DNA from: a virus
DNA: 64,000 nucleotides
Direction: 5' to 3' (one strand)
Virus record (IMG/VR): IMGVR_UViG_3300027971_000039
Coordinates: 1-64,000 of that record
Under the pieces are notes generated by a model that worked only from the letters and a program-made list of their open reading frames with translations, was not told the DNA's origin and did no database searches. A program made the translations under genes and the position numbers. Shown piece by piece: positions 8,240 to 62,539 of the stretch. Positions within the stretch are counted from its first letter, which is position 1. Each line of letters starts with the position of its first letter.

Positions 8240-10129
8240 ATGAGCAAAACACCTTGGGGAGAATTGGGTTACATCACATATAAAAGAACATATGCTAGAA
8301 GAATCAAAGAGAATTCGGAACAAACGGAAGAGTTTGAACAAACGGTTGACCGTGTTATTAAATCGACAAAAAATCAACTCAAAGTGGGCTTCACTGAACA
8401 AGAAGAGTCTCGCCTCAAAGAAATCCTTATTAGTTTAAAGGGTAGTGTTGCTGGGCGATTCTTATGGCAACTAGGAACTAAAACAGTAGATAAACTAGGT
8501 TTAGCCTCACTTCAAAACTGTGCAGTTACTTTGGTGAACGAACCCATTCGCCCCTTTACTTGGGCAATGGATATGCTCATGCTTGGCAGCGGAGTTGGAT
8601 ATAACATTCAACGTGAATATGTATATGAGCTACCCAAAGTACAAAAAGCAAAAATAATTAGACAAGATTCAAAAGACGCTGATTTTATTGTTCCAGATAC
8701 AAGGGAAGGTTGGGTTGAACTTCTTGAACGAACTCTTAGAGCACATTTCGTTACTGGTAGAGGATTTACTTTCTCGACTATTTGCATCAGAGGAAAAGGA
8801 ACAGCAATCAAAGGATTCGGAGGAGTAGCATCTGGCGCAGAAGAATTGTGCTGGGGAATTGAACAGATCAATAGAATCTTAAATGATCGTTCAAATAAAA
8901 AAGTAAGACCTATTGATTGCCTTGATATAATGAACATCATCGGCTACATAGTTGTCGCTGGTAACGTTCGACGCTCTGCACAAATCGCAATTGGTGACAT
9001 GGACGACCTACAGTTCCTAAATGCAAAACGTTGGGATTTAGGCAACGTTCCAAACTGGAGAGCAATGTCAAACAATTCCGTTGTTTGTAATGACATGGCT
9101 CTTCTTCCTGAACAGTTTTGGCAAGGATACATGGGCAACGGCGAACCATATGGATTAATCAACCTGGGCCTCGCTAGGTCTATTGGTAGGGTGGGAGAAA
9201 CACAATACCCAGACCCAGATGTTATTGGATTTAATCCATGTGCTGAACAATCATTAGCAGATAAAGAAACCTGTTGCCTAGCTGAAATCTTTCTCCCTAA
9301 TATTGAATCAGAAGATGAGTTATTTGAAGTTGCAACATATCTTTATCGTATCAATAAACATTCATTATCACTTCCTTGCCATCACCCAGAAACACAAGAT
9401 ATTGTGAATTACAATATGAGGATGGGTATTGGTATAACTGGCTACCTCCAAGCGACAAAAGAGCAAAGAAGCTGGTTACCAAATGTCTATAAAGCCCTGC
9501 GAAAGTATGATAAAGATTATAGTGAACACAATGGGTTTAATCCATCTATTAAACTTACAACAGTAAAACCAAGCGGAACTCTTTCATTACTTGCTGGTGT
9601 AACACCAGGCGTTCATCCTGGTTATTCACAGTATTACATTAGGAGAATACGCATTGCTTCAACATCTCCTCTTGTAAATGTATGTAGGAAAAATGGATAT
9701 GAAGTCGAATTCCAACGTAATTTTGATGGTACTCTTGATAACAATACTGTGGTTGTATCTTTCCCTTGCTCTTTTCCTGCCGGAACAACTTTAGCAAAAG
9801 ATGTAACGGCAATTGATCAACTCAATTTTGTAAAAGAATTACAAACAAATTGGAGCGACAATTCGGTAAGTTGTACCGTTTATTATCGAAAAGAAGAACT
9901 GCCAGAAATTAAACAATGGTTAAATCAAAATTATAATACGTGTGTTAAAACCGTTAGTTTTCTTCTTCACAATGAACATGGATTTGACCAAGCACCCCTT
10001 GAAGAAATAACTAAAGACATGTATGATAAAATTGTATCTAATGTGACACCAATCACATCTTGTGAAATAAAAGAAACCGATATTCAGGACTCCTTCGAGT
10101 GCATCGGAGGAGCGTGCCCAATCAAATGA
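8240..10129 (+). CDS. nrdJ: class II (B12-dependent) ribonucleotide reductase
   Basis: 629 residues, a compact monomeric form related to Lactobacillus-type ribonucleoside-triphosphate reductase. It makes deoxyribonucleotides from ribonucleotides using adenosylcobalamin, needing neither oxygen nor a second subunit. Seen: Cys94 in L-Q-N-C-A, N-P-C-A-E with the probable thiyl Cys334, the P-S-G-T-L-S loop (about 454), and the redox pair Cys621/Cys626 in the tail C-I-G-G-A-C-P-I-K. The start has a strong AAAAGGAG site in the same context as that of the dUTPase gene (28404). No reductant gene is next to it. Confidence 0.93.
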   Translation: MSKTPWGELGYITYKRTYARRIKENSEQTEEFEQTVDRVIKSTKNQLKVGFTEQEESRLKEILISLKGSVAGRFLWQLGTKTVDKLGLASLQNCAVTLVNEPIRPFTWAMDMLMLGSGVGYNIQREYVYELPKVQKAKIIRQDSKDADFIVPDTREGWVELLERTLRAHFVTGRGFTFSTICIRGKGTAIKGFGGVASGAEELCWGIEQINRILNDRSNKKVRPIDCLDIMNIIGYIVVAGNVRRSAQIAIGDMDDLQFLNAKRWDLGNVPNWRAMSNNSVVCNDMALLPEQFWQGYMGNGEPYGLINLGLARSIGRVGETQYPDPDVIGFNPCAEQSLADKETCCLAEIFLPNIESEDELFEVATYLYRINKHSLSLPCHHPETQDIVNYNMRMGIGITGYLQATKEQRSWLPNVYKALRKYDKDYSEHNGFNPSIKLTTVKPSGTLSLLAGVTPGVHPGYSQYYIRRIRIASTSPLVNVCRKNGYEVEFQRNFDGTLDNNTVVVSFPCSFPAGTTLAKDVTAIDQLNFVKELQTNWSDNSVSCTVYYRKEELPEIKQWLNQNYNTCVKTVSFLLHNEHGFDQAPLEEITKDMYDKIVSNVTPITSCEIKETDIQDSFECIGGACPIK

Positions 10130-11910: not shown

Positions 11911-12177
11911 ATGAAAAAAATTGTAAATGTTCAAGAAGTTGAAGGTGAAGGATTGGTTGGATTACTTGGTGAACGTGTTGAATTGTTTTGTATGAATTAC
12001 ATTTACACAGGCACACTAACTGGCGTAAATACCAATGATGTTCTTCTTGAAGACGCTGCTATTGTTTATGAGACAGGACCATTTGATGATCCTAAATATA
12101 AGGATGCGCAAAAAGTTGGTAATCTTTATGTAAGATCTAATTCTATTGAATCATATAGGAAGACAAATAAACGATGA
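11911..12177 (+). CDS. Sm-like small beta-barrel protein
   Basis: 88 residues with the Sm-like pattern V-E-L-F-C-x-N-Y-I-Y-T-G-T-L-T-G-V, a turn, then L-E-D-A-A-I-V-Y-E-T-G. Phage proteins of this pattern are conserved and, from memory, often precede genes for low-complexity Gly/Ser dipeptide-repeat proteins, exactly as here. The fold suggests RNA binding like Hfq/LSm (inference). AAAGGAG supports the start, and the stop overlaps the next ATG. Confidence 0.65.
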   Translation: MKKIVNVQEVEGEGLVGLLGERVELFCMNYIYTGTLTGVNTNDVLLEDAAIVYETGPFDDPKYKDAQKVGNLYVRSNSIESYRKTNKR

Positions 12178-12238
12178 ATATTCGTAGTTTAAAACAAAAA
12201 TGGTCTTGGTCTGGGTCTGGGTTTAGGTCTAAGTCTGG
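12170..12238 (+). repeat. 69-bp direct repeat, copy 1
   Basis: Identical to 12411-12479 over 69 bp. It starts 4 bp before the ATG of the dipeptide-repeat gene and covers the first 21 codons. The 241-bp spacing points to a tandem duplication. Confidence 0.85.
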
Positions 12239-12404
12239 ATCTAAGTCTGGGTCTGGATCTGGATCTAGGTCTGGATCTGGATCTGGGCCTGGGTTTTGGT
12301 CTTTGTCTGAATCTAGGTCTGGGTTTTGGTCTTGGTCTAGGTCTACGTCTGGGTTTAGGTCTTGGTCTTGGTCTTCGTCTAAGATTAGGTCTTGGTCTTG
12401 GTAG
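12174..12404 (+). CDS. low-complexity Ser-X dipeptide-repeat protein (76 aa)
   Basis: After MNIRSLKQK every second residue is Ser, with Trp, Gly, Arg, Lys or Phe between, ending R-S-W-S-W. The DNA is a degenerate hexamer array of T-C-T-N-N-N. ATG overlaps the stop of the Sm-like gene, so it is probably translated. Its first 69 bp recur at 12411. Function unknown; a DNA-level role of the array is also possible. Confidence 0.5.
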   Translation: MNIRSLKQKWSWSGSGFRSKSGSKSGSGSGSRSGSGSGPGFWSLSESRSGFWSWSRSTSGFRSWSWSSSKIRSWSW

Positions 12405-12410
12405 GTTAAT

Positions 12411-12479
12411 AACGATGAATATTCGTAGTTTAAAACAAAAATGGTCTTGGTCTGGGTCTGGGTTTAGGTCTAAGTCTGG
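12411..12479 (+). repeat. 69-bp direct repeat, copy 2
   Basis: Second copy of the 5' end of the dipeptide-repeat gene, followed by a shorter run of the same hexamers. Confidence 0.85.
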
Positions 12480-12519
12480 GTCTAAGTCTAGATCTAAGTC
12501 TGGGTTTATGTCTAGATAA
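12415..12519 (+). CDS. truncated duplicate of the dipeptide-repeat protein (34 aa)
   Basis: Starts with the same 22 residues as the gene at 12174 (MNIRSLKQKW, then S-X repeats) and stops after 34 residues. No ribosome binding site independent of the duplicated leader is visible. It may be a decaying copy. Confidence 0.35.
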   Translation: MNIRSLKQKWSWSGSGFRSKSGSKSRSKSGFMSR

Positions 12520-12710
12520 GTTAATTGGGACGGCGTGGGAAGCTAGGGCTTGGGGCAGCAGCCAAGTGTAAACATCAGTTGAAACCCCTTGGAGACACGC
12601 AGTCACGTACTTAAGAGCGTTATGTACGAGCAACAATAAGACACTCCTTATTGTTTGGCAGGAGTCGCGCCCTGCTCCCAATTTTATCCAATATGTTAAA
12701 GAAAGGTTAA
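12519..12710 (+). ncRNA. structured RNA-like element, copy A
   Basis: First of two tandem elements with identical ends and different middles. AATTGGGA (12523-12530) pairs with TCCCAATT (12676-12683). Directly inside the 3' strand is a hairpin GCAGG/CCTGC (12658-12675), the layout of a tRNA acceptor stem plus T arm. GCGTG (12533-12537) can pair with CACGC (12596-12600). AACAATAAG/CTTATTGTT and CGTAC/GTACG hairpins fill the middle. No reading frame is conserved between the copies. I recognise no RNA family. Confidence 0.55.
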
Positions 12711-12713
12711 GTG

Positions 12714-12920
12714 AGTTAATTGGGACGGCGTGGGAAGCTGTGAGGGGGTTGAGCGTAATGGCTCGGATACCGCGAAAGTGGAGTGTTACTCACTAGAGAC
12801 ACGCAAGACACAGAAGCTGCATTGAATGTACTGTTGAAATACCCACGTTAGGGGCTGCTCAATGCTGGCAGGGGTCGCACCCTGCTCCCAATTTTATCCA
12901 ATATGTTAAAGAAAGTTTAA
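12714..12920 (+). ncRNA. structured RNA-like element, copy B
   Basis: Second copy. The first 26 bases match copy A exactly and the last 54 nearly so, including GCAGG..CCTGC (12868-12885) and the closing stem AATTGGGA (12718-12725) with TCCCAATT (12886-12893). GCGTG (12728-12732) with CACGC (12800-12804) is kept, while the other middle hairpins differ (for example GAGC/GCTC). Conserved ends with a variable middle argue for an RNA scaffold, not a gene. Confidence 0.55.
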
Positions 12921-13155: not shown

Positions 13156-13234
13156 TGGCCCATATCTCCTTCGGCTTATATCCGATAGAAAGAGTAGCGG
13201 TGACACGTGGGTTCAAATCCCACTGCGCCGACCA
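13156..13234 (+). tRNA. tRNA-like element or tRNA remnant (no anticodon assigned)
   Basis: A good tRNA 3' half is seen: T arm GTGGG/CCCAC with loop TTCAAAT (13207-13223), then TGCGCCG, A and an encoded CCA (13232-13234). The 5' segment TGGCCCA (13156-13162) pairs with TGCGCCG with one C-C mismatch and one U.G, and the length is tRNA-like. No proper D arm or anticodon stem can be drawn. It may be a decayed tRNA, a tRNA mimic or a former attachment site. Confidence 0.4.
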
Positions 13235-13240
13235 TTAACT

Positions 13241-14218
13241 ATGAAAAGAAAACTTAAACCAATAAAACAAATCGACATGGCCTGGGGTAGCCCAGCTTTT
13301 CTTTCGCCATATTGGGAAATCAATAAGATCAATGTCGATCACGTAAAAAAGAAAAAAAGCTATTCAATCGGCTCCCGTGCAAAACTTCGGAATAGAATAA
13401 AAGGGTTACATAAAAAAATAGGAAACGCTGAAACAAAAAATAAACATATTGTTGTTGCAGCTGGTGCAACGCAAATTGTATTAGGATTGATGCACGTACT
13501 TCGAGAACAAAATCCGAAAATCAAATCAGCTTGGGCTAAACCACCACACTTCTCCAGATTTCCCAAACTAGCGGACTTTGCAAAGCTAGATTGGTTTAAT
13601 ACAGAAGTAGCTATTACAATCACCAGTAACCCAAACAATCCAGATAATAGTATCTCAGATGAAACAGGATCAACCATTCTGGATCTATGTTATAATTGGC
13701 CACAATATACAGATCAAGTTAAAAAGTATGATCACCCAGTAATGGTATTTTCTTTAAGTAAAGCAACTGGTCACGCAAGCACACGCATAGGCTGGGCTAT
13801 CCTAAAAGATAAAGAATTAGCAAAAGCACTGGAAACTTATATCGAAATAAGTACGGGTGGATTATCAATCGACGCGCAAATCCGTGCTGAAAAAGTAATT
13901 GAACACCAGTTATCCACAGATTATACAGTATTTGATTATGGAAAACATGTTTTAAATGAACGTTGGAAAATCATAAATAAATTAGTAGAAGAAAATAAAC
14001 TTTATTTTACAGTCATGAATTCATCTGGAATGTTTCTTTGGGCCAACGGACTGTGCCCGCCCCACATATCCAAGATAAAAGGATCGGATTTAAAAGCAAC
14101 TGATGAATTCTTTAGATTAAATGTTGGATGTGGGCAAGGTGATTTTGATAACTTCTTACAAACAATATGCAAAGGAATTGACACAAGCCACCTGTATAAG
14201 ATAAAAGTATATTACTAG
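13241..14218 (+). CDS. PLP-dependent aminotransferase of the alliinase/TAA1 family
   Basis: 325 residues. The order of motifs matches plant tryptophan aminotransferase (TAA1) and alliinase C-terminal domains: G-S-P-x-F-x-x-Y-W (16-25), G-N-A-x-T-x-x-x-x-I-V-V (61-72), G-A-T-Q (75-78), S-N-P-N-N-P-D (129-135), D-L-C-Y-N-W-P-Q-Y-T (148-157), and the PLP lysine K174 in S-L-S-K-A-T-G-H-A-S-T-R-I-G-W-A. Such enzymes move the amino group of an aromatic or other amino acid to a 2-oxo acid. The gene begins 6 nt after the tRNA-like CCA without a clear ribosome binding site; ATG 13277 is an alternative start. The substrate in a phage is unknown. Confidence 0.8.
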   Translation: MKRKLKPIKQIDMAWGSPAFLSPYWEINKINVDHVKKKKSYSIGSRAKLRNRIKGLHKKIGNAETKNKHIVVAAGATQIVLGLMHVLREQNPKIKSAWAKPPHFSRFPKLADFAKLDWFNTEVAITITSNPNNPDNSISDETGSTILDLCYNWPQYTDQVKKYDHPVMVFSLSKATGHASTRIGWAILKDKELAKALETYIEISTGGLSIDAQIRAEKVIEHQLSTDYTVFDYGKHVLNERWKIINKLVEENKLYFTVMNSSGMFLWANGLCPPHISKIKGSDLKATDEFFRLNVGCGQGDFDNFLQTICKGIDTSHLYKIKVYY

Positions 14219-60176: not shown

Positions 60177-61192
60177 TTAGCTATTAACAATGTCAGTAAT
60201 AATGGTGTTACGACCGGGAGCCTGACAGAAGAGGGCCTGATCGGTGTAAAGGCGTAGCTCGTAAGCCGCGCTGTTCTCTAGGTCACGGAAGAACTCTTCA
60301 CCTTGACCGGGACGCTTGAAGGTGATATCGGTAGAACCGACGCGCATCCAGTCTTCAACGTTAAGAAGATAAGCATATCCTTGCTTAACATAAAGAGACG
60401 GCTCAATTTCAATCTCACCATTTTGTGAATGGAATTTGAGTGATTTTGATCCGTTTTCCATTTTAGCAGGACTGTAGCTCTGATCATACTTGCGTAGAGC
60501 AGCTTGGTCGGTGAGCATATTCTGCCAAGAACGGACGTTGACTAGAGCAAGAAGTGTACCTTCTTGACCTTTTTCAACGGCACGGGTTGCAGCCTGTCCG
60601 AGTTTGGTAAAGGATAGAGCAGCTGAAGCTGCGCTATAGGTGTTACCACGGAAGAGGTTGTAAGTTCCAACGTCGATGTTGAAGAGTGAACCTGAAGAAA
60701 CGGTTAGAATCTTGTGGATTCCAGCGAATTCGTTTCCGTAAGCCCCTTTGTGCCAAATAATATCACCAGAAGCGATGAGAGCAGCAACAGAAGAGTCACA
60801 GGTAACAGTCTGAGCAGACATGTCTACTGAAAGAACCTTAACAGATGCTTTTAAGGCACCAGTTGAAGGATCGCGAATTTCAATAGGCATTCCTTCTGCC
60901 CCTGCCCAGATACCAGGTGCCCATTCACCGGTTTCAATGGTGATAACTGCACCAAGTGCGGAGTCAACAACAGCATATCCAACCTGACCATAGAGCATTT
61001 CGATTTCGAGCTTCTTGGCCATAGAACGGAGCATGTTTGCCACTAGGAATTTAGTAGCATCCATGAAAGCCTTCTGACCACCGAGAGCAGCACGAGAAGC
61101 AGCGACATAGCCAAGGAGTGAACGGAGAACGGCTGGAGAGCCTTTCACCTGAGCGTCTTTGACTTGTCCTGCGACTGGAGCTTGTAAGTTAA
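60177..61192 (-). CDS. major capsid protein, exon 3
   Basis: Main part of the capsid gene (two bases plus 337 codons and stop). After splicing it continues exon 2 as ...E-D-A-F-N-L-Q-A-P-V-A-G-Q. Contains M-D-A-T-K-F-L-V-A-N-M-L-R-S-M-A-K-K-L-E-I-E and L-L-Y-G-Q-like elements of N4 gp56-type capsid proteins, ending ...D-I-V-N-S. Joined product 415 aa. Read alone, the frame has a misleading GTG start at 61148. Confidence 0.85.
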
Positions 61193-62099
61193 CAAATTCA
61201 AATACTTAATGTATTTGTGTGGGGCTCTTTATCCCCACAGTCCCATATTTCTATGGGATTGGACTATCTTTTTTTCCAAAAACAGCTATAAAATAATTTA
61301 CCATTGATTTATCTAAATTCATTAATTTAGCAATCTTATGTGGCGTATTATTATTGATATGTAAAGAAAGAATTTGTTCTTTCATTTCCATATACTTTTT
61401 TGGAAATCGAGGACTCGTGGAAGGATTATTAACATTTTCAGTCTCACCTTCTAGTCTCTGCGCGTGTCCAGAGATTTCTTCTGAACTTCCGCTCTGATTG
61501 GCATGAGAAAGATATTCAAACTTAAAATTTTTACGAATAACATTATATTTACAACTAGCTAAAATACTACTTCTAGAAATATTTAATTCTTTGCAAGCAT
61601 TTTTAAAAGAACTAAAAACATATACTTCTGATGTAATTGTATTTATCGCTTTCACACCAACAATATGATTTGTCGATTCTTTGTTTAATTTTTTATTTCT
61701 CATTTTTTGTTTTGTTTCGTTGTCAAAAGTGTAATCATTACCACCAGTGGTTAAATTATAACCATTTGGGCGTAATGTATTATAAAATTCAATAAAATAT
61801 TTTTCATAATAATTTAATGAATCTTTATCAAAACAAGAAATAATTTCTTCAAATATAAAGTTATTAAGGCCGTATTTTTTAAAAGCCTTACCCAAAATAC
61901 CAGATTTTGTCCACTTGTGTGCACCCCAACGTAAACGAACATTACGTTTGGTTTGACCAACGTATTGTTGTCCGTTAACTTTGTTAGTGATTAGGTAGAT
62001 TAATCCGTATTTCATTTTATCTTTCTTTTAGCGTTCCAGGTTTTTTCCTCAATTTTCACTATACTGTTACCAGTATAGGGCCCTTAACTTAACAAGTCA
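61193..62099 (-). ncRNA. group I intron 2 in the capsid gene (907 nt, with endonuclease ORF)
   Basis: 5' site: exon end GCCT pairs with internal guide GGGC (62083-62080), giving the required U.G at the splice site. P10: AAGTTAA (62090-62084) pairs with exon 3 start TTAACTT (61192-61186). Core R element C-A-G-A-G-A-C-T-A-G (61460-61451) and S element A-A-G-A-T-A-G-T-C-C (61270-61261) form P7; P5 and P3 pairings are also drawable. P2 CTATACTG/CAGTATAG and three 3' hairpins (P9 type) are present. The intron ends in G61193. Confidence 0.85.
61251..62015 (-). CDS. intron-encoded GIY-YIG homing endonuclease
   Basis: 254 residues starting between P2 and P3 of intron 2. The GIY-YIG module is Y-G-L-I-Y-L-I-T-N ... 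Y-V-G-Q-T (3-20), with R-L-R-W and an E at about 65. The final ~85 residues, including a helix-turn-helix-like K-I-A-K-L-M-N-L-D, are encoded by the ribozyme core itself (P3-P8), so protein and RNA share sequence. It should cut intron-less capsid genes to spread the intron. Confidence 0.88.
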   Translation of the reverse strand: MKYGLIYLITNKVNGQQYVGQTKRNVRLRWGAHKWTKSGILGKAFKKYGLNNFIFEEIISCFDKDSLNYYEKYFIEFYNTLRPNGYNLTTGGNDYTFDNETKQKMRNKKLNKESTNHIVGVKAINTITSEVYVFSSFKNACKELNISRSSILASCKYNVIRKNFKFEYLSHANQSGSSEEISGHAQRLEGETENVNNPSTSPRFPKKYMEMKEQILSLHINNNTPHKIAKLMNLDKSMVNYFIAVFGKKDSPIP

Positions 62100-62142
62100 A
62101 GGCGTCTTCGTCTGATCCGGCAAAAGTCACTCCGTGTTCTAA
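62100..62142 (-). CDS. major capsid protein, exon 2 (43 nt)
   Basis: Fourteen codons plus one base, encoding L-E-H-G-V-T-F-A-G-S-D-E-D-A. Between two introns. The E-H-G-V-T-F-A motif is expected in this capsid family at this place, which confirms the exon. Confidence 0.8.
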
Positions 62143-62350
62143 CATACTGTTATCATTGAGTTTTTCTCAATAGGCTGGTCATTTCTGCCAACCTCTACCG
62201 TTTCATTTTGTTATTTCGGTAGTTCGGACTATCGCATCAACTTTCGTTGCCAACTCGTTTAGTCTCTCACGGTGCTTTCGCTTCCGCCTTGTCACCCTCT
62301 ACAGGGCTTCCAAGTCAATTAGAGTCGGTTTAGGCTCGGCTTAGAAGTTA
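62143..62350 (-). ncRNA. group I intron 1 in the capsid gene (208 nt, no ORF)
   Basis: P1: exon 1 end CTCGGT (62356-62351) with GCCGAG (62340-62335), U.G at the splice site. P10: TTCTAA (62346-62341) with exon 2 start TTAGAA. P3 CCGACTC (62328-62322) with GAGTTGG (62256-62250); P7 from AGAGACTA (62267-62260) and GATAGTCC (62233-62226); P8 CAAC-GAAA-GTTG (62249-62238); P9 CTACCG/CGGTAG and two more 3' hairpins. It ends in G62143. Very compact for the class. Confidence 0.9.
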
Positions 62351-62539
62351 ACCGAGGATAATTGGCTGGTGATATAAATTCCCAGGTTGCTTATCCTTGC
62401 TCATGAACTTGATCTTATTTAGCAACTTAACCCCATCTGGGATTAACTCTGCAAGACGATCGGCATAAGTTTCTTTGAAAAATCCATTCAATGTTCCAAC
62501 GGTATTATTTGGAGTACCGTAAGTATTTGCACTTGCCAT
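62351..62539 (-). CDS. major capsid protein, exon 1
   Basis: 63 codons from ATG 62539 (GGAAA upstream), ending ...Y-H-Q-P-I-I-L-G. Without splicing it would stop at TAA 62350-62348, giving an abnormally short product. N-terminal arm of the capsid fold, with F-F-K-E-T-Y-A-D. Confidence 0.85.

What the first reader, a model, noticed from the sequence alone, without database searches (positions are those of the whole stretch)
12519..12920. Two tandem copies of an unrecognised structured RNA-like element
Two ~190-205-nt units share exact 5' ends and near-identical 3' ends (closing stem AATTGGGA/TCCCAATT, T-arm-like hairpin GCAGG/CCTGC, and GCGTG/CACGC) but have different middles. This is how RNA families look, not genes. 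The tRNA-like outer layout next to an Sm-like protein gene suggests a phage RNA-protein module. I recognise no known family (not tmRNA, pRNA, GOLLD/ROOL by size or motif).
Basis: partly seen in the sequence, partly recalled or inferred. Interest (0 to 1): 0.8.

Follow-up and report, generated by a model that had tools for sequence, protein, structure and literature searches.

The report
Phage RNA: constant scaffold, swappable middle
Two neighbouring copies of an RNA gene in this phage belong to a large, apparently undescribed family of phage RNAs that keep one tRNA-shaped frame and swap the piece inside it between related viruses, which suggests a fast-evolving tool phages use on their hosts or on each other.

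Summary
The two units (12523-12683 and 12718-12893, + strand) are members of a structured-RNA family that I found in 186 loci, nearly all in IMG/VR phage contigs. It also occurs in named phages of Pseudomonas, Ochrobactrum and Sulfitobacter. Rfam 15 (4,227 families) and the open literature held here gave no match.
The constant part is a closing stem P1 (any sequence, strongly covarying), a 2-nt linker (CG), hairpin P2 (loop GAAAGCAGA, or GGAAGCU..UGGAGA around an insert B), and hairpin P3 (8-nt loop NGU[A/C]GCGN) abutting P1. G.U pairs far outnumber A.C in P1, so the + strand forms the structure.
The part between P2 and P3 (D) is hypervariable: 159 clusters among 177. It is replaced wholesale between near-identical phages, and the same D occurs on different scaffolds.
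Some members have a promoter-like site and terminator. The Sm-like fold of the neighbour protein is supported, but a link to the RNA is not: near relatives lack it. It is not tRNA or tmRNA.
Best reading: a trans-acting RNA whose fixed scaffold binds a conserved partner while an exchangeable domain sets specificity. The function is inferred, not shown.

The parts
12523..12683 (+). RNA unit 1, 161 nt, long subtype (P1-CG-P2 with insert B-D-P3-P1')
   Evidence: R1 match 105.9 bits, full length; pattern; covariation
12718..12893 (+). RNA unit 2, 176 nt, long subtype
   Evidence: R1 match 107.4 bits, full length
12523..12530 (+). unit 1 P1 5' strand AATTGGGA, pairs with 12676-12683 TCCCAATT
   Evidence: covarying stem: 8 of 8 pairs changed on both sides across 147 distinct P1s, 94.4% paired vs 53% shuffled
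12533..12600 (+). unit 1 P2: GCGTG / CACGC with internal loop GGAAGCT..TGGAGA and insert B
   Evidence: P2 covaries in the wider family; conserved loop
12545..12590 (+). unit 1 variable insert B
   Evidence: 40 B clusters among 47 long-type members
12601..12657 (+). unit 1 variable domain D (two hairpins)
   Evidence: fold z -2.5; unrelated to unit 2 D
12658..12675 (+). unit 1 P3 hairpin GCAGG-AGTCGCGC-CCTGC, T-arm-like position
   Evidence: 8-nt loop NGU[A/C]GCGN conserved in 186 members; stem covaries
12676..12683 (+). unit 1 P1 3' strand
   Evidence: as P1 5' strand
12718..12725 (+). unit 2 P1 5' strand, pairs with 12886-12893
   Evidence: covariation
12728..12804 (+). unit 2 P2 with insert B (GTGAG..CTCAC)
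   Evidence: the same B occurs with other D domains in L010, L027, L061
12805..12867 (+). unit 2 variable domain D: H-type pseudoknot ACAG/CTGT + GCATTGA/TCAATGC
   Evidence: 100% of cells paired, 3 compensatory pairs in L009
12868..12885 (+). unit 2 P3 hairpin GCAGG-GGTCGCAC-CCTGC

Best explanation
A small structured RNA gene family of tailed phages. SHOWN by sequence comparison: a constant scaffold (covarying closing stem P1, linker CG, hairpin P2 with an invariant loop, hairpin P3 with an invariant 8-nt loop directly against P1) holds a hypervariable domain D, and in one subtype a second one, B, inside P2. D is exchanged as a block between otherwise near-identical phages and reused on unrelated scaffolds, with the conserved P2 and P3 as natural crossover points. 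The + strand forms the structure. INFERRED: the RNA is transcribed (own promoter and terminator in some phages, cut from operon transcripts in others) and acts in trans. The tRNA-shaped scaffold docks on a conserved host partner or shields the RNA, while the exchangeable domain supplies target specificity. Turnover of that domain is driven by diversifying selection, most simply an arms race with host defences or competing phages. Two copies with different domains would then cover two targets.
For: Family and pairing. Strand: G.U 28 vs A.C 6 in P1 pairs 2-8, p = 2e-4. Hypervariability: 159 D clusters of 177 and 40 B clusters of 47 at 72% identity; B and D assort independently. Domain swap: L229 vs L222 flanks 96-97% identical, same P1 AGATGCGG, D 63 vs 157 nt with no match; L171 vs L179; Orimi01 vs L202. 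Same D with different P1 and flanks. Promoter-like hexamers at -13 to -10 before P1: 15 vs 1.9 expected. In Pseudomonas phage Persinger the element is followed at once by a GC hairpin and T5. tRNA T-arms inside the variable part in 8 of 192 vs 0.055 shuffled, one in a circularly permuted tRNA (L104). No conserved neighbour; 1-3 matches per genome in most records searched. Almost absent from bacterial genomes.
Against: No expression, binding or phenotype data. D is not more stably folded than flanking DNA on average (z -0.45 vs -0.36), so it need not be a binding domain. No antisense match to its own neighbourhood. No association with a defence or anti-defence gene was tested or found. Variable peripheral domains also occur in RNAs whose core alone does the work.
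Confidence: 0.42

Rival explanations
1. The scaffold itself is the working part (a ribozyme, a small-molecule or protein-binding core formed by the P2 and P3 loops and the CG linker), and D and B are peripheral filler that drifts and recombines neutrally, as in group I introns or RNase P.
For: Unpaired conservation is concentrated in loop 2 (GAAAGCAGA), loop 3 (U 184/186, G 185/186, C 185/186) and the linker (CG 173/186). The loop-3 A/C choice is tied to the P2 subtype (p = 4e-18), as expected if the loops touch, though shared ancestry could also cause it. D has no excess folding stability.
Against: Filler would be expected to shrink or drift gradually. Instead D is replaced as a block between near-identical phages and reused elsewhere, some D families are themselves constrained pseudoknots, and tRNA-derived pieces are retained.
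Confidence: 0.28
2. A cis-acting element in phage operon transcripts: an RNA-processing or stability element, or an antiterminator like the put RNAs of HK022, that acts on the transcript carrying it.
For: Often lies between closely spaced genes; the downstream gap is tens of nt with a ribosome-binding site in several loci. Dispersed copies within one viral record mostly share a strand. In the window no good promoter precedes the units.
Against: No conserved downstream gene. In Persinger it follows the integrase gene, is followed at once by a terminator, and the next gene is on the other strand. A promoter-like site sits right before P1 in a subset. A cis element does not need an exchangeable domain.
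Confidence: 0.15
3. A tRNA/tmRNA-derived translation factor (aminoacylated, ribosome-associated).
For: tRNA-like outer layout; embedded tRNA T-arms in 4% of members; mild excess of tRNA genes within 500 nt, 7 vs 2.6 expected.
Against: No CCA excess after P1 (16 vs 12 of 192), no GTTCRA T-loop in P3, ARAGORN and Rfam tRNA/tmRNA negative on the units.
Confidence: 0.05
4. A DNA-level element (recombination or packaging site folding as single-stranded DNA) rather than an RNA.
For: Block exchange at the site.
Against: Strand-specific wobble tolerance fits RNA (though a single DNA strand would show it too); promoter and terminator placement; no fixed genome position.
Confidence: 0.05
5. The first reader's RNA-protein module with the Sm-like protein at 11911.
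For: The neighbour has a predicted Sm fold.
Against: Absent next to the RNA in L024 and L035 and in nearly all other members.
Confidence: 0.03

Closest known systems
tRNA / tmRNA (RF00005, RF00023)
   Same: closing stem, 2-nt linker, D-arm-like hairpin, 5-bp T-arm-like hairpin abutting the closing stem
   Different: no CCA, no T-loop or D-loop signature, 8-nt P3 loop NGU[A/C]GCGN, P1 length varies; not found by ARAGORN or Rfam
GOLLD and ROOL RNAs
   Same: phage-associated structured RNAs of unknown role (PMC12286853); from my own knowledge some carry tRNA sequences in variable regions
   Different: those are several hundred nt; this is 88-280 nt with an unrelated core; no Rfam match
phage T4 stable RNAs rnaC and rnaD (species 1 and 2)
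   Same: small stable phage RNAs; rnaC ends in a tRNA-like T-arm
   Different: neither covariance model matches them (best E about 2 at rnaC); rnaC keeps a canonical T-arm
phi29 pRNA
   Same: phage structured RNA of similar size (own knowledge)
   Different: no match to the Rfam library; no fixed link to packaging genes seen
RNA anti-CRISPRs (Racr, PMC10651486)
   Same: precedent for phage non-coding RNAs used against host defence
   Different: Racrs mimic CRISPR repeats; no such resemblance was tested here
HK022 put RNAs
   Same: phage RNA hairpins between genes (own knowledge)
   Different: put sites are cis-acting and short; no Rfam match; placement here often argues against cis action

Membership tests
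tRNA | recognised by tRNA gene finder / Rfam tRNA model | tested here: not met
   no match on the units
tRNA | 3' CCA next to the acceptor stem | tested here: not met
   CCA within 5 nt after P1 in 16 of 192, control 12 of 192
tRNA | T-loop GTTCRANNC in the arm next to the acceptor stem | tested here: not met
   P3 loop is NGU[A/C]GCGN in 186 members
tRNA | cloverleaf outer layout (acceptor, 2-nt linker, D-arm, T-arm abutting acceptor) | tested here: met
tmRNA | match to tmRNA gene finder / Rfam tmRNA model | tested here: not met
   the weak tmRNA hit at 13206-13223 is a lone T-arm outside the units
any Rfam 15 family | covariance-model score above gathering threshold | tested here: not met
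   gathering; E-value mode
T4 rnaC/rnaD | match to the family models R1/R2 | tested here: not met
new family defined here | P1 covarying stem + CG + P2 with GAAAGCAGA or GGAAGCU..UGGAGA + P3 with NGU[A/C]GCGN abutting P1' | tested here: met
RNA-based counter-defence factors | inhibits a host defence system | not testable with these tools
   no assay data
RNA-Sm/LSm module | RNA and Sm-like gene co-occur | tested here: not met

The most novel reading that the evidence does not exclude
A constant-plus-variable RNA platform: phages carry a fixed RNA frame with a recombining, exchangeable specificity domain, deployed in trans against host immunity or rival phages, with new domains captured from other phages and from tRNAs.
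Probability: 0.25. Interest if true: 0.95.

Novelty: categorically new. Interest (0 to 1): 0.82.

Why it matters
It would add a large RNA class to tailed phages, including named phages whose records annotate nothing there (Persinger, POI1126, pCB2047-A), so it can be tested now. Block exchange of the inner domain at a fixed RNA scaffold is an unusual pattern for a non-coding RNA and resembles what is seen at sites under strong diversifying selection. It would also give a concrete handle on the open question of what small structured phage RNAs do.

Tried and rejected
MFE folding alone: misleading, because it ignores the conserved pairs. Rfam at gathering and permissive thresholds: no match. A universal pseudoknot in D: only partly supported (mean shuffle rank 0.29; 24% of members at or below 4% of shuffles), so claimed only for two D families with covariation. 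D as antisense guide to its own neighbourhood: no excess. Dedicated neighbour gene: none seen (my ORF calling in GC-rich loci was unreliable and is not used). Sm-like partner: rejected because near relatives lack it. T4 rnaC/rnaD as relatives: a GTAGCG match in rnaC looked promising but lies in a longer stem there. Functional embedded tRNAs: ARAGORN at default threshold finds none in the inserts; only relaxed scoring does. Host genomes, plasmids and E. coli: essentially none. Literature: ten searches, nothing describing this family; bioRxiv and most subscription journals are not held, so prior description cannot be excluded.

Full report
WHAT IS THERE. The window is part of an 85,827-base IMG/VR virus record. 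The two units lie at 12523-12683 and 12718-12893 on the + strand. They share an identical 26-nt 5' block and nearly identical 3' blocks and differ completely in the middle. Each reads P1 (AATTGGGA/TCCCAATT) - CG - P2 (GCGTG/CACGC, with GGAAGCT..TGGAGA around an insert I call B) - D - P3 (GCAGG, 8-nt loop, CCTGC) - P1'. P3 abuts P1' with no spare base.

A REAL AND LARGE FAMILY. A pattern made only from the two halves of P2 hit 40 viral contigs. In these contigs P1 is different in sequence but still paired. A structure-annotated alignment of 17 members gives 94.9% paired cells, 16 of 22 pairs with changes on both sides, and no shuffle of 500 as good; sliding the partners by one column drops pairing to 33-40%. 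A looser P2 pattern returned 48 contigs, of which about 10 new ones are good members. A scan with the short P2 hairpin alone also ran into the limit, and model R2 matched every new locus, though a few only partly. In the members selected through P2, P3 covaries; in those selected through P3, P2 covaries; P1 covaries everywhere (147 distinct P1s, 94.4% paired against 53% shuffled). The analysed set is 192 distinct members in 186 loci, 88-280 nt long, median about 160.

SUBTYPES AND INVARIANT POSITIONS. The commoner short type has P2 as a plain hairpin with loop GAAAGCAGA; the window belongs to the long type, which carries B in that loop. The P3 loop is N-G-U-[A/C]-G-C-G-N (U 184, G 185, C 185 of 186) and the linker is CG in 173 of 186. 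The A/C choice in the P3 loop goes with the P2 subtype (27 C, 14 A in the long type; 4 C, 140 A in the short type). A contact between the two loops, as in a tRNA elbow, would explain this, but shared ancestry could too.

RNA, NOT DNA. In P1, G.U pairs outnumber A.C oppositions 28 to 6 (p = 2e-4), so this strand is the one that folds. TATAAT-like hexamers are concentrated 10-13 nt before P1 (15 against 1.9 expected; the position was read off the same data), which would start transcription at the first base of the structure in a subset. In Pseudomonas phage Persinger the element (L193:2494-2596) is followed immediately by CCCCGC-loop-GCGGGG-TTTTT, and the Pseudomonas AUS531phi type has a terminator nearby. 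The simple consensus scanner missed both signals in Persinger, so promoter claims rest on the position statistics. In the window itself no good promoter was found; there the units may be cut out of an operon transcript.

THE INNER DOMAIN IS HYPERVARIABLE AND EXCHANGED. At 72% identity 177 D domains fall into 159 clusters and 47 B inserts into 40. B and D assort independently: the B of unit 2 occurs with three different Ds (window/L020, L010/L027, L061), and its D occurs with four different Bs (window/L020, L024, L008, L009). L229 and L222 have flanks 96-97% identical on both sides and the same P1, yet D domains of 63 and 157 nt with no similarity; L171/L179 and Orimi01/L202 show the same with one matching flank. 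Conversely, similar D domains sit on different P1 stems in unrelated flanks. The conserved P2 and P3 are natural crossover points.

WHAT D LOOKS LIKE. On average D is not more stable than flanking DNA. Two D families contain H-type pseudoknots: unit 2 and relatives (three compensatory pairs in L009), and a family in Pseudomonas-type prophages with the conserved string ACCTGAA (GCGC/GCGC replaced by CAGC/GCTG, GAC/GTC and others). Eight of 192 members hold a perfect tRNA T-arm in the variable part (0.055 expected); in L104 the insert is a circularly permuted tRNA joined to the scaffold through its anticodon stem. ARAGORN accepts none of them as tRNAs at its default score.

WHERE IT OCCURS. Named carriers: Pseudomonas phages AUS531phi, OQ658365, PotUPM1, Persinger and the Orimi/Orisa group, Ochrobactrum phage POI1126, Sulfitobacter phages of CB2047. 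Most records annotate nothing there. Bacterial genomes are nearly free of it: 2 of 84,980 species genomes with the strict long-type pattern, 1 of 399 of the same phylum with a 15-mer that chance alone would give, none in plasmids or E. coli with the one query tried. Viral records mostly carry 1-3 copies. Neighbouring genes vary.

MECHANISM. Shown: constant scaffold, strand, exchangeable domain. Inferred: trans action; scaffold as common dock or shield; D as specificity domain; arms race as the driver. The main rival is that the scaffold is the active part and D is filler; the block swaps, the constrained pseudoknot families and the captured tRNA pieces speak mildly against it. The cis-element rival is weakened by Persinger, where nothing co-oriented follows. 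The Sm-like neighbour does have a predicted Sm fold but does not travel with the RNA.

NOVELTY. No Rfam 15 family matches. T4 rnaC and rnaD are not members. Ten literature searches found no description, in a library that lacks preprints and most subscription journals. I therefore call the family new, with the reservation that an unseen paper may exist; its function is unknown and the mechanism above is a proposal.

Noticed in passing
window 13162-13233: Lone tRNA 3' half (GTGGGTTCAAATCCCAC TGCGCCGA CCA) with only a degenerate 5' part; ARAGORN does not call it, and Rfam gives only a weak tmRNA T-arm hit.
   Followed up: partly
window 12174-12404 and 12415-12517: Two copies of a GTCTGG-type hexamer-repeat open frame starting MNIRSLKQKW, directly upstream of the RNA units; similar repeats precede the element in L008, L020 and L048.
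   Followed up: no
window 13241-14218: Phage-encoded alliinase-like PLP enzyme (Pfam Alliinase_C, E 1e-47), rare in viral contigs (8 relatives).
   Followed up: partly
window 11911-12177: Small phage protein with a predicted Sm fold (Foldseek E 2e-4 to SmF and archaeal Sm proteins), found in a few related phages.
   Followed up: yes
L104 (element at 8848-9051, - strand): Circularly permuted tRNA, acceptor ends closed by a CGAG loop and joined through the anticodon stem, sitting in the P2 insert.
   Followed up: partly
window 60177-62539: GIY-YIG-like endonuclease frame (61251-62015) between two pieces that look like one capsid-type gene, possibly an intron or intervening homing endonuclease.
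   Followed up: no
L046:3650-3720: Close relative where the RNA is gone but its 3' end (CCCCAATTTTATCC) remains behind the DUF3310 gene, a trace of loss.
   Followed up: no
L098:1864-1944: Rfam Proteo-phage-1 RNA (RF03044) about 210 nt upstream of a family member.
   Followed up: no
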